Shown: positions 1,895 through 56,036 of the stretch, one piece after another
How the letters are laid out: every line of letters starts with the position of its first letter
How positions within the stretch are numbered: position 1 is the first letter of the stretch
Origin: Natronococcus amylolyticus DSM 10524
Lineage (GTDB): Archaea; Halobacteriota; Halobacteria; Halobacteriales; Natrialbaceae
Reading direction: 5' to 3'
NCBI RefSeq assembly: GCF_000337675.1
Contig: NZ_AOIB01000014.1
Coordinates: 151,352 to 215,351 of the forward strand
DNA: 64,000 bases
Position numbers and translations under genes: made by a program
The notes under the pieces: generated by a model
Database searches by the model: none
What the model saw: the letters and a program-made list of their open reading frames with translations, nothing else
What the model was told of the DNA's origin: nothing

Positions 1895-1915
1895 GCGGGG
1901 AACGAAGTGACCCGC
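1895..1915. repeat. Hairpin with GAACGAAGTGA loop
   Basis: GCGGG (1895-1899) pairs with CCCGC (1911-1915) around an 11-nt loop GAACGAAGTGA. The reverse complement of this loop, TCACTTCGTTC, matches the loop family seen in the tRNA 3' flanks. Confidence 0.7.
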
Positions 1916-2169: not shown

Positions 2170-2208
2170 ACGACGACCGAAGGGAGGAGTGGAAAAGCCG
2201 GAAGGCGA

Positions 2209-2274
2209 GATCGAACTAGACGAGTCGCGCGCAGCGTAGCGAGCACGTCTCGGCGGAGTTCGATTCTCGCACCC
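2209..2274. repeat. Palindromic element carrying a copy of the tRNA-His 3' end
   Basis: Bases 2258-2274 repeat 17 nt of the tRNA-His T arm and acceptor (2143-2159) exactly. An inverted arm ATCGAACT (2210-2217) pairs with AGTTCGAT (2257-2264). Inside, AGACG/CGTCT encloses a GCGCAGCGTAGCGAGC core. The rest of the gap, 2275-2608, shows no gene or other structure that I can support. Confidence 0.75.
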
Positions 2275-2608
2275 AAATCTTCTGGCAACGAACCGAGCGA
2301 GAATCAGACAGGTCCTTGGAGAATCGATCGAAGCTGGTGTCCTCCGTCGAGAGCAGCGGAAAACCACTACAGGCCTCGTGCTTCCGGAAGAATATCGTTC
2401 GCTCTCTCCCTCGAGCCGAACACACGGGATCGCCACCCCCTCCCCAGCCGACTCGTTCGTTCGCGGTCTTCAACCGCTCGCTCACTCGCCCCTCACGTGG
2501 TTTCGAACCGCAGTTCGCCGTCGGCTCACTGCAGTTCAGCACGCGCCACCGCAATCACCAGCAAAACGGAACTCGTTCAGGGATCGGCCAGGCGGCCGTC
2601 TCACGACG

Positions 2609-9484: not shown

Positions 9485-9669
9485 GGGACCCGATCCTATC
9501 CGTGGCCGGAGTAAGTATCTTGGCCATGAACGGACTCACGAGGCCACAGCCCTACGGTTTGGTAGCAACGGACAGTCTCGATCGGATCGGTGGTTGGATG
9601 GCTCAGTTGTTGTTGGAGTCGCGGCTGTAGTAACGGTTGCTCGAGCAAGAAGCACGTAAAATCGGGATA

Positions 9670-9787
9670 CCGCCTCCCGGATTTGAACTACGCCTGAGAA
9701 CCTGCTCGCGTTGCTCGCAGAACCTCAGTCTAGTTCAAATCCGTTCGGATAGATTTCTCTCGCTCACGAGTTGTTCGCGAGAGAAAT
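9670..9787. repeat. Palindromic element and hairpin behind tRNA-Phe
   Basis: Bases 9670-9688 repeat 19 nt of the tRNA-Phe 3' end (9789-9807) exactly. CGGATTTGAAC (9678-9688) is matched by an 11-bp perfect inverted copy GTTCAAATCCG (9733-9743). Between the arms, CTGC/GCAG encloses loop TCGCGTTGCTC. A second hairpin at 9753-9787 has 11-bp perfect stems (ATTTCTCTCGC) and a 13-nt loop TCACGAGTTGTTC; its last base is the tRNA discriminator. The gap 9485-9669 holds only a doubtful 34-codon frame. Confidence 0.8.
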
Positions 9788-9860
9788 GCCGCCTCCCGGA
9801 TTTGAACCGGGGACAGCTCGATCTTCAGTCGAGTGCTCTCCCAGTCTGAGCTAAGGCGGC
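9787..9860 (-). tRNA. tRNA-Phe (anticodon GAA)
   Basis: A complete cloverleaf read on the minus strand. Acceptor GCCGCCT pairs with AGGCGGC; discriminator A73 is at 9787. The anticodon stem CTCGA/TCGAG has loop CTGAAGA, giving GAA. The T loop TTCAAAT is normal. There is no intron and CCA is not encoded. Confidence 0.97.
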
Positions 9861-10780: not shown

Positions 10781-10898
10781 TGGGCTCGAGCGGGTTCGAA
10801 CTACGCCAAGACGTGCTCGCTTCGCTGCGCGCGTCTTGTCTCATTCGAACCGCCCTCGTATACATTTCTCTGGCTCACCGATTGTTCGCCAGAGAAAT
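10781..10898. repeat. Palindromic element and hairpin behind tRNA-Val
   Basis: Bases 10781-10801 match 20 of 21 nt of the tRNA-Val 3' end (10898-10918). An inverted arm TTCGAACC lies at about 10844-10851. Between them, AAGACG/CGTCTT encloses a GCTCGCTTCGCTG core. A second hairpin at 10864-10898 has perfect 11-bp stems (ATTTCTCTGGC) and a loop TCACCGATTGTTC. It is the same design as behind tRNA-Phe with a changed but compensated stem base pair. The rest of the gap from 10519 shows no gene. Confidence 0.8.
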
Positions 10899-10971
10899 GG
10901 GCTCGGGCGGGTTCGAACCACCGACCTCGGCCTTGTAAAGGCCGCGTCATAACCAGCTAGACCACGAGCCC
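10898..10971 (-). tRNA. tRNA-Val (anticodon TAC)
   Basis: Minus-strand cloverleaf. Acceptor GGGCTCG pairs with CGAGCCC; discriminator A73 is at 10898. Anticodon stem CGGCC/GGCCG with loop TTTACAA gives TAC. T arm GGTGG/CCGCC with loop TTCGAAC. No intron; CCA not encoded. Confidence 0.97.
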
Positions 10972-21133: not shown

Positions 21134-21337
21134 AGCGGTAGTGGATACAGCAACGGCTTGCTTCGCTCGTCGTTGTCCGATTCGAACCGCTAGTGGTCCC
21201 GTACTCGCGGCTCATGGATTGTTCCCGCGAACTACATGGACCCTGACGGATTCGAACCTCGGTCGGAGCAAAGCTCCTCCCTACTTCGAATCCGCAGGGA
21301 TCATCTCACGCCGTTCGCATCGCTCACGGCGTTCGAA
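21134..21337. repeat. Two palindromic elements behind tRNA-CAT
   Basis: Proximal unit: 21241-21258 repeats 18 nt of the tRNA 3' end (21342-21359) exactly. It is mirrored by 21285-21299 with one bulged base, around GGAGC-AAA-GCTCC (21265-21277). A further hairpin ACGCCGT/ACGGCGT (21308-21332) has loop TCGCATCGCTC. Distal unit: AGCGGT (21134-21139) faces ACCGCT (21186-21191) around CAACG/CGTTG with a GCTTGCTTCGCTC core. CGCGG/CCGCG (21206-21229) encloses CTCATGGATTGTTC. Confidence 0.75.
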
Positions 21338-47418: not shown

Positions 47419-47572
47419 CGCCGAAGCCAGGACTCGAACGGATGCGAGACGGTCGGCCTCACTCCGTTCGGCCGCGTGCGACTCGCGTGCTCGAGTCCTG
47501 TTTGTTTCGCTGTTCTTCTCACCGAATTCGTTCGGAGCTATCGCTCCTCACAAGTAACGTTCGAAGAACAGC
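47419..47572. repeat. Palindromic element and nested hairpin behind tRNA-Asn
   Basis: Bases 47419-47439 repeat 21 nt of the tRNA-Asn 3' end (47572-47592) exactly, including the discriminator. CAGGACTCGA (47428-47437) is mirrored perfectly by 47491-47500. Inside, CGGCC/GGCCG (47454-47474) encloses loop TCACTCCGTTC. A second hairpin GCTGTTCTTC/GAAGAACAGC (47509-47518, 47563-47572) contains TCACCGAATTCGTTC and a nested GGAGC/GCTCC. Confidence 0.8.
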
Positions 47573-52432: not shown

Positions 52433-52790
52433 CTCACTTATCGCGAGTGCTTCACGTTGTTCAGCACTCGCTCTTGTGTTCGGTCCTGACGTGCCTCACG
52501 CTCACTTCGCTCGCGTGAGACTCCGTCAGGACGTTTCTGTCGACACCAAACCGCGAGCAAAGCGAGCGACTGGTGTCGGCGAAACTCCGATACGGAGATT
52601 TGAGCAGGAAAGTCGCAGCGGCTGAGCGAAACGAGGCCGAACGTCTTTCCGAGTTCAAATCTCCGGAGCGTCTCCGACGCTCCGTGCCCAACGCTCATTT
52701 CGTCACCGGCGGCGAAGCCGCCGGTTTCCAGCGGGACCGAAGGTCCCGCCCGGTTCGTGTGAGACTCCGTCAGAACGCTTTCTGTCAAGT
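52433..52790. repeat. Dense hairpin array with tRNA-Arg 3'-end copies
   Basis: Partial tRNA copies: 13 nt at 52521-52533, 15 nt at 52651-52665 and 12 of 13 nt near 52764. Hairpins in order: GCGAGTGCT with loop TCACGTTGTTC (52443-52471); acceptor palindrome GTCCTGACG/CGTCAGGAC around CTCACGC/GCGTGAG with loop TCACTTCGCTC (52483-52532); GACACCA/TGGTGTC (52542-52577); CGGAGATTTGA/TCAAATCTCCG (52593-52665); GGAGCGTC/GACGCTCC (52665-52683); ACCGGCGGC-GAA-GCCGCCGGT (52705-52725); GCGGGACC-GAA-GGTCCCGC (52731-52749). No gene lies in 52433-52913. Confidence 0.85.
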
Positions 52791-55324: not shown

Positions 55325-55865
55325 GGGTGAGAGGAGTAAGCCCCCTTCTGTTCGATCCGGCATTCGGCTGAGCGTCCGCGCCGTCCGCGAAATCGCGGAG
55401 CGTTCGGGCTACCACGGCGCGGACTTGCACCGGTGAGGATTCGCCGTTCCATCGATCCTCGGCCGTCTGTGTGTGGTCGACCGCGCCAGTCGACGTGAAT
55501 CGCGCGGTCCATGGATTCGAACCACGTGTGTACGACCACACTCGACTCGGCGGTTTGCACCGCCTCGTCTTCGACGACTCGTGCGCCGGAGGCGCTCCGA
55601 GTCGCCTGTTCGACGGCTCGCGCCGTCTCACGTTTCGCGGTCCGTCGGACCGCGCATCCCTCGGCGGGTCAGCTCCCCTTCCTCGCGGTCGGGTTCGCGC
55701 GCCTCATCGGTCGGGCCGAGACGTGTCGTTTCTGTTCCAGAGCCGGCGGTCTCCCGCCCCGGACTTGCGTCCGGTCACCCGCCCGAACGGGTGGGGGGAC
55801 TTTCCTCGCGAGCGTTGGACACCTCGGGGAGGTGGCCAACGTGGGGGCACGACGCGACGTCGAGT
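55325..55865 (-). ncRNA. rnpB: RNase P RNA
   Basis: Read on the minus strand. The universal CR-I sequence GAGGAAAGTCC lies at 55797-55807, and the CR-V sequence ACAGAAGGGGGCTTA at 55337-55351. GCCCCC (55843-55848) pairs with GGGGGC (55340-55345) as helix P2. The hairpin between P2 and CR-I (55814-55840, GTTGG/CCAAC) is P3. The internal GGTGCAAGTCC-like CR-IV region is near 55420-55430. It is the ribozyme that makes tRNA 5' ends. Ends are estimated; a possible longer 5' pairing CTGGGAGAG (55925-55933) with the 3' CCCAG end would extend it to about 610 nt. Confidence 0.85.
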
Positions 55866-56036
55866 CGCCTCGTGCCATGGTGACCCCGCCGTCGCCGGCG
55901 AGGTCATCGCGGCAGCCGGGCTCTCTCTCCCAGCGTGACGTAGGGGCGGCAGGCGAATAAGTCCCGCGGTCGCCCCCCAGCCGGGCCTCGAGCCGAATGG
56001 AAGCGTTTTAGGACGTCAATTCCCATGTGCATTCGT

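What the first reader, a model, noticed from the sequence alone, without database searches (positions are those of the whole stretch)
9753..9787. Family of hairpins with conserved loops but changing stems next to tRNAs
The tRNA-Phe and tRNA-Val flanks have 11-bp perfect stems differing by one compensated pair, with loops TCACGAGTTGTTC and TCACCGATTGTTC. The tRNA-CAT flank has CGCGG/CCGCG around CTCATGGATTGTTC (21206). The tRNA-Arg flank has TCACGTTGTTC (52452) and TCACTTCGCTC (52502). The tRNA-Asn flank has TCACTCCGTTC (47459). Related loops are TCGCATCGCTC (21315) and TCGCGTTGCTC (9705). Consensus: TCRC-N3-5-GYTC. A loop kept constant with stems changing in a base-paired way is the signature of a recognised RNA or ssDNA hairpin, e.g. 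REP-like elements or a nuclease/transposase target.
Basis: partly seen in the sequence, partly recalled or inferred. Interest (0 to 1): 0.75.

Follow-up and report, generated by a model that had tools for sequence, protein, structure and literature searches.

The report
tRNA-anchored hairpin cassettes in haloarchaea
Behind most tRNA genes of salt-loving archaea sit short gene-free DNA units, each carrying a copy of the end of that tRNA plus conserved hairpins; they come and go precisely between close relatives and occupy the same sites as larger integrating elements, so they look like miniature mobile cassettes that no paper I could search describes.

Summary
Each of the window's six tRNAs is followed by a unit of about 90-150 bp: hairpin A, a T-stem-like arm plus TTTGAA, hairpin B, then a direct copy of that tRNA's own 3' end starting exactly at G53 of the T-loop (GTTC). 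In the whole genome (a Natronococcus), 28 of 44 tRNAs tested carry such a copy. A covariance model of the B half matches 77 of 81 Halobacteriales genomes sampled and 0 of 312 others in the phylum. In three complete genomes, 101 of 112 hits lie within 700 nt 3' of a tRNA on the same strand. Arms match the host tRNA and covary; the tRNA-sense strand folds best, with tandem G.A and GNA triloops. Close relatives show precise filled and empty sites. Gene-bearing elements with SNJ2-type tyrosine integrases occupy the same position. Best reading: non-autonomous mini-cassettes inserted by tyrosine recombination at the tRNA T-arm. A folded, attC-like single-stranded site is plausible but unproven. The recombinase is inferred. 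RNA function is not excluded but is disfavoured by fast turnover.

The parts
9787..9860 (-). tRNA-Phe(GAA); its 3' part GTTCAAATCCGGGAGGCGGCA (9787-9807) is the proximal (intact) repeat
   Evidence: ARAGORN and Rfam; exact position
9753..9787 (-). hairpin A of the Phe unit (the finding): 11-bp stem, tRNA-sense loop GA-AC-AACTC-GT-GA
9678..9743 (-). module B of the Phe unit: T-stem-like arm + TTTGAA, CTAG/CGTAG box, hairpin B, GTTCAAATCCG
   Evidence: model R1 hit 9675-9745, E=5e-12
9668..9688 (-). distal direct copy of the tRNA-Phe 3' end (20/21)
10863..10899 (-). hairpin A of the Val unit, 12-bp stem
10790..10853 (-). module B of the tRNA-Val(TAC) unit
   Evidence: (E=8e-15)
10781..10801 (-). 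distal copy of the tRNA-Val 3' end (20/21)
21308..21332 (-). hairpin A-type hairpin of the tRNA-Met(CAT) unit
21247..21294 (-). module B of the tRNA-Met unit (short hairpin B GGAGCTTTGCTCC)
   Evidence: (E=8e-4)
21237..21257 (-). distal copy of the tRNA-Met 3' end (20/21)
21206..21229 (-). second hairpin A (CGCGG-GAACAATCCATGAG-CCGCG), start of an older, decayed unit
47428..47500 (-). module B of the tRNA-Asn unit, hairpin B with GGA triloop (47459-47469)
   Evidence: (E=7e-5)
47419..47439 (-). distal copy of the tRNA-Asn 3' end (21/21)
52443..52471 (+). first hairpin behind tRNA-Arg; GA-type loop on the opposite strand (possibly an inverted unit)
52495..52533 (+). second opposite-strand hairpin (52495-52519) followed by the tRNA-Arg 3'-end copy ACTCCGTCAGGACG (52520-52533)
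   Evidence: weak minus-strand R1 hit
52595..52664 (+). module B of a normally oriented tRNA-Arg unit, ending GTTCAAATCTCC
   Evidence: (E=5.5e-5)
2207..2268 (+). module B of the tRNA-His unit
   Evidence: (E=1.9e-13)
2258..2278 (+). distal copy of the tRNA-His 3' end (18/21)

Best explanation
The hairpins are parts of gene-free, roughly 90-150-bp cassettes that integrate into the T-arm of tRNA genes. Each cassette supplies a new tRNA 3' end (T-loop to discriminator), so the tRNA stays intact, followed by hairpin A and module B; the host's original 3' end is left at the distal side. SHOWN: the architecture; the sharp duplication start at G53; tailoring to each host tRNA; covarying, strand-asymmetric folding; precise filled and empty sites between close relatives; at tRNA-Val an extra unit next to the tRNA with the shared unit pushed downstream; use of the same position by gene-bearing elements with SNJ2-type tyrosine integrases. 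INFERRED: recombination is done by a tyrosine recombinase, most likely of SNJ2 type supplied in trans. The T-stem would serve as its arms and the 7-nt T-loop as its overlap. Module B would be the cassette's att site, possibly used as a folded single strand (R-like box = T-stem, L-like box = NNAG/CGTNG with a bulged G, hairpin B as the variable end), much as integron attC sites are used.
For: Tailored tRNA 3'-end copies. Copy begins at G53: mismatch 0 at G53 versus 0.66-0.87 two or more positions upstream. Acceptor-side match to host 7.27/8 versus 3.96 permuted, T-stem 4.78/5 versus 2.71; left arm 3.66/5 versus 2.68. Covariation: 277 double-changed cells versus 106 shuffled, 90.9% paired versus at most 54% when slid. 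GNA/GA loops 57 sense versus 2 antisense; the sense strand folds better in 104-108 of 119. 101 of 112 hits sit 3' of a tRNA on the same strand. Empty/filled pairs for Lys, Ile, Thr and Pro, plus one extra Val unit. Six of 11 distant hits lie 117-345 bp from a SNJ2-type integrase gene. Integrase loci carry tRNA 3'-end copies just upstream of the gene with unit arrays behind them.
Against: No excised form, strand exchange or enzyme was observed. Unit number does not correlate with SNJ2-type integrase number (rho 0.20, p 0.12). Nine genomes with units have no integrase at E<1e-20, and the window's genome keeps only one such match, where I found a 113-aa fragment. Several integrase-bearing elements have a seamless tRNA copy without module B. 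Loss could occur by recombination between the ~21-bp repeats without any integrase. How a cassette retargets from one tRNA to another is unexplained. One unit (tRNA-Arg) seems partly inverted.
Confidence: 0.62

Rival explanations
1. The units are scars: what remains after larger tRNA-integrated elements (proviruses, plasmids) lost their interior, keeping attL/attR-proximal hairpins. They are not mobile themselves.
For: Gene-bearing elements with SNJ2-type integrases occupy the same position and end near tRNA 3'-end copies, sometimes with module B (own contig C31; G008). Repeat-mediated deletion is described in Haloquadratum (PMC3119063).
Against: Units have a constant compact architecture, including hairpin A next to the tRNA, which the intact G008 element lacks at its left end. 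Independent deletions would not be expected to converge on this. Precise units are present against empty native flanks between close relatives.
Confidence: 0.18
2. Functional RNA: the hairpins are a conserved tRNA trailer acting in 3' processing, termination or regulation.
For: Strand bias matches transcription from the tRNA; arms covary; present behind most tRNAs in nearly all haloarchaea. Units conserved between G000 and G004 are more alike than their flanks (0.927 versus 0.856).
Against: Several tRNAs have none, and relatives differ in presence, number and hairpin type at the same tRNA. The T-arm-like arm would pair with the tRNA itself. Module B also occurs 5-20 kb from tRNAs, next to integrase genes.
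Confidence: 0.09
3. The tRNA-end duplication is a long target-site duplication made by another integrase (casposase/Cas1-like) or an HUH/REP/PATE-type transposase, with the hairpins as the transposed element.
For: A duplication of about 21 bp at the tRNA 3' end with leader-side insertion resembles Cas1-type integration (general knowledge); haloarchaea have transposase-free palindromic repeats (PATE, SMR; PMC3119063).
Against: The T-stem-like arm inside the element also matches the host tRNA and covaries with it, which a target-site duplication does not produce. Tyrosine integrase genes are found at the same junctions, although Cas1 and HUH genes were not searched for.
Confidence: 0.07
4. Compositional artefact: GCGAAC/GAGCGA-type words are common in haloarchaea and fold by chance.
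For: GA-type hairpins with short stems also occur elsewhere in the window at about shuffled frequency.
Against: tRNA association 90% versus 0.4% expected, tailoring to the host tRNA, covariation and precise indels.
Confidence: 0.01

Closest known systems
SNJ2-type tyrosine integrase elements of haloarchaea (pleolipovirus SNJ2 and relatives)
   Same: Same target region (tRNA 3' end), direct repeat of the tRNA 3' end, same chromosomal position behind the same tRNAs; 6 distant module B copies lie next to such integrase genes. The review PMC8371274 gives a 13-14-nt att site for SNJ2.
   Different: The units are about 100-150 bp, carry no gene, occur behind most tRNAs and contain covarying hairpins; that review calls the SNJ2 att site 'stem loop-free'.
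Integron attC cassettes
   Same: Cassette array anchored at one site, extra cassette next to the anchor, a candidate recombination site at the distal end of each cassette that can fold into a hairpin with two boxes, a bulged base and a variable terminal hairpin, one strand favoured.
   Different: No IntI shown, no attI, no genes in the cassettes, core is GTTCRAAT rather than GTTRRRY, and the anchor is a tRNA T-arm.
PATE/SMR/MITE transposase-free repeats of haloarchaea (PMC3119063)
   Same: Short, gene-free, palindromic, mobile, dependent on an enzyme in trans.
   Different: Those are described as targeting other mobile elements or copying IS605 ends; these are tRNA-specific, tailored to each tRNA and duplicate the tRNA 3' end.
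REP/BIME elements
   Same: Short strand-specific hairpins in intergenic DNA.
   Different: Not scattered; bound to tRNA 3' ends; contain tRNA-derived arms.

Membership tests
tRNA-integrated element of tyrosine recombinases | Direct repeat of the tRNA 3' end flanking the insert, tRNA left intact | tested here: met
   28 of 44 own tRNAs; precise empty/filled sites
tRNA-integrated element of tyrosine recombinases | Integrase encoded by, or acting on, the element | tested here: inconclusive
   Units too short to encode one; SNJ2-type integrase genes at 6 of 11 distant sites, but no copy-number correlation
tRNA-integrated element of tyrosine recombinases | Excision and integration shown | not testable with these tools
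   Needs experiment
Integron / attC cassette | Folded site with paired boxes, bulge, variable end | tested here: met
   Covariation and conserved folding; CGT/AG boxes in most units. Potential to fold only; use as a folded site is not shown
Integron / attC cassette | Core GTTRRRY | tested here: not met
   Core is GTTCAAATC or GTTCGAATC
Integron / attC cassette | attI anchor and gene cassettes | tested here: not met
   Anchor is a tRNA gene; units are gene-free
Integron / attC cassette | Integron integrase IntI in the genome | not tested
   No specific search for intI was made
REP elements | Scattered intergenic hairpins (with a RAYT/HUH transposase, not searched for) | tested here: not met
   90% of copies lie 3' of tRNAs
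Known Rfam RNA family | Match above gathering score | tested here: not met
   Only tRNAs and RNase P found in the window

The most novel reading that the evidence does not exclude
Haloarchaea have an integron-like system anchored on tRNA genes. Gene-free (and sometimes gene-bearing) cassettes are inserted at the tRNA T-arm by tyrosine recombinases that use a folded single-stranded att site whose arms track the host tRNA.
Probability: 0.25. Interest if true: 0.92.

Novelty: new variant of a known kind. Interest (0 to 1): 0.74.

Why it matters
If right, nearly every haloarchaeal genome carries dozens of overlooked miniature elements on its most conserved genes, at the landing sites of proviruses and plasmids. 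It would explain what follows haloarchaeal tRNA genes, give a record of past integrations, and offer a candidate in archaea for recombination of folded single-stranded sites by a tyrosine recombinase outside classical integrons. It makes open points testable: how SNJ2-type integrases recognise such a short att site, and how integrative elements change their tRNA target.

Tried and rejected
1) First viral-contig pattern was mis-spaced and hit only an unrelated AT-rich phage. The corrected pattern gave 8 viral contigs that I did not follow up. 2) Phage-record search gave only weak chance hits to Pseudomonas phages. 3) Idea that hairpin A's stem copies the host's terminator T-run: rejected, because in empty/filled pairs the native flank is displaced and hairpin A comes with the unit. 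4) Kink-turn reading of the tandem G.A: set aside, since the R:Y covariation shows the pairs form and no 3-nt bulge is present. 5) Dosage link between unit count and SNJ2-type integrase count: none. 6) First permutation test of the distal end had an off-by-one error; redone. 7) In an early notebook entry I counted 31 tRNAs with a copy; recounting one search gives 28, leaving out tRNA-Asp, whose 'copy' is a second full tRNA gene.

Full report
1. THE OBSERVATION. On the tRNA-sense strand their 'loops' read GA-RC-N(3-6)-GY-GA: a tandem G.A mismatch and two Watson-Crick pairs, the first alternating G-C/A-T. So part of the supposed constant loop also covaries. In the window, 6 of the 8 such hairpins with a stem of 4 or more lie 3' of a tRNA.

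2. Printing the flanks of all six tRNAs shows that each is followed by a direct copy of its own 3' end. The order on the tRNA strand is: tRNA ... GTTCRAATCC-acceptor 3' strand; hairpin A; a stretch matching the T-stem followed by TTTGAA or TTCGAA; hairpin B; GTTCRAATCC-acceptor 3' strand again. Distal copies in the window: Phe 9668-9688, Val 10781-10801, Met 21237-21257, Asn 47419-47439, His 2258-2278, and a partial one behind Arg at 52520-52533. Some units are in tandem.

3. WHOLE GENOME. The window lies in a 4.42-Mb, 44-contig genome with 45 tRNAs. The closest named sequences are Natronococcus contigs (96.6-96.8% over 1.6 kb). Of 44 tRNAs with a scorable T-loop, 28 have a copy of their own 3' end (15 of 21 or better) within 400 bp downstream; shuffles reach at most 13-16 (tRNA-Asp left out because its copy is a second full tRNA gene). 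I aligned 25 units from the T-stem-like arm to the distal T-arm ('module B') and built a covariance model R1. In this genome R1 gives 32 hits with E<1e-3, of which 30 lie just 3' of a tRNA on its strand (compared by eye with the tRNA list). The other two, on contig C31, lie about 1.7-2 kb behind a tRNA-Val with an integrase remnant between. None of this is an Rfam family at gathering threshold.

4. DISTRIBUTION. R1 matches 57 of 61 relatives, 1-44 hits each. In a sample of the phylum it matches 77 of 81 Halobacteriales genomes and none of 312 other genomes (stricter filters). A plain pattern scan of 84,980 species gave mostly haloarchaea among the loci listed, including Haloferax, Haloarcula, Halorubrum, Natrinema and Natrialba; the few bacterial hits were not examined. 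In three complete genomes, 101 of 112 hits lie within 700 nt 3' of a tRNA on the same strand, a space covering about 0.4% of the genome; 71 of 131 tRNAs carry at least one.

5. TAILORING AND FOLDING. In 104 units with an identified host tRNA, the distal T-stem strand matches the host at 4.78/5 positions (permuted 2.71) and the acceptor strand plus discriminator at 7.27/8 (permuted 3.96). The left arm matches the host T-stem at 3.66/5 versus 2.68. The copy starts sharply: mismatch is 0 at G53 and 0.66-0.87 at two or more positions upstream; T-loop position 57 matches the host in 98 of 101. Over 119 distinct units 90.9% of cells pair, with 277 double-changed cells against 106 in shuffles; slid registers pair at 54% or less (A2 was fitted to this structure, so these counts lean towards it). 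The boxes next to the core are NNAG on the left and CGTNG on the right in most units, so the right strand carries a bulged G. The GA-WC2-N3-WC2-GA motif occurs 57 times on the sense strand (46 with GNA triloops) and twice on the antisense strand. The sense strand folds better in 108 (RNA) and 104 (DNA parameters) of 119. From general knowledge, d(GNA) triloops and tandem G.A are unusually stable in DNA; this is suggestive, not proof, of a DNA role.

6. MOBILITY. Comparing this genome (G000) with a close relative of the same genus (G004): tRNA-Lys(UUU) is empty in G000 and carries a 138-bp unit in G004 with the native flank intact behind it. tRNA-Ile is empty in G000 and filled in G004. tRNA-Thr (L033) and tRNA-Pro (L038) are filled in G000 and empty in G004. 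At tRNA-Val G004 has an extra unit next to the tRNA, with the shared unit pushed outward. At L018, L034 and L039 hairpin A is kept while hairpin B is swapped, the break being at the left arm. Other tRNAs carry entirely different units in relatives of the genus. So units are gained or lost precisely and turn over quickly, although units that are shared are somewhat better conserved than their flanks (0.927 versus 0.856). Direction (gain or loss) is not proven for individual cases.

7. LINK TO INTEGRASES. In G008 a 3.8-kb element lies between tRNA-Phe and an older unit. It encodes a tyrosine integrase with phage-integrase and SAM-like domains, which I call SNJ2-type from the domain architecture and class distribution given in PMC8371274; I did not compare it with the SNJ2 protein itself. 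Its att junction is a tRNA-Phe copy split by two hairpins between T-stem and GTTC. Close integrase relatives occur in 49 of 61 genomes. Of 30 such loci, 13 have a tRNA 3'-end copy just upstream of the integrase gene: 5 seamless, 6 split by hairpins, 2 inside ordinary units. Several have unit arrays behind. Six of the 11 R1 hits far from tRNAs in the complete genomes lie 117-345 bp from such an integrase gene. This places the units at the same recombination site. Against a simple dependence, unit and integrase counts do not correlate.

8. MECHANISM. A T-arm is a 5-bp inverted repeat around a 7-nt loop, the geometry of a tyrosine-recombinase core site. A cassette inserted there must bring a new 3' end that fits the host tRNA, which explains the tailored right side. 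Why the left arm also tracks the host is best explained if both arms pair in one strand, i.e. the site is used folded, as attC sites are. That step is inference. Alternatives are ranked in the Rival explanations section.

9. KNOWN OR NEW. Integration of haloarchaeal viruses and islands into tRNA genes with partial 3' copies is well known (PMC3119063, PMC7230728, PMC8371274). Transposase-free repeats are known in Haloquadratum (PMC3119063). Full-text searches found no description of gene-free, hairpin-bearing tRNA-tailored units; most subscription journals and all preprints are not covered, and the original SNJ2 integrase paper was not read. I file it as a new variant of tRNA-targeted integrative elements; the integron-like reading would be categorically new.

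Noticed in passing
window 55325-55931 (-): Archaeal RNase P RNA gene matched over the full model but spanning 607 bases, with two large insertions (94 and 227 positions hidden in the alignment), i.e. unusually long helices/insertions.
   Followed up: partly
window 52443-52533: First hairpins behind tRNA-Arg have the GA-type loop on the strand opposite to the tRNA, unlike the other units in the window; possibly an inverted or rearranged unit.
   Followed up: partly
L112 and L113 (relatives G002, G003), behind tRNA-Phe: Partial tRNA-Phe copies starting at the anticodon arm and split in the T-arm by hairpins: attR-like junctions lying inside unit arrays.
   Followed up: partly
L280-L324 and L001-L044, distal copies: A recurrent one-base insertion in the distal T-loop (GTTCACAATC, GTTCATAATC) at different tRNAs and species, suggesting that the distal T-loop is carried by the element.
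   Followed up: no
L120 (G000 contig C31) 2000-4100: Remnant of an integrated element behind tRNA-Val: integrase fragment and a 229-aa protein without Pfam match, ending in module B fused to a tRNA-Val copy.
   Followed up: partly
window 1900-1910 and 2515-2527: Two further GA-type hairpins (5-bp stems) near tRNA-His but not in a unit.
   Followed up: no
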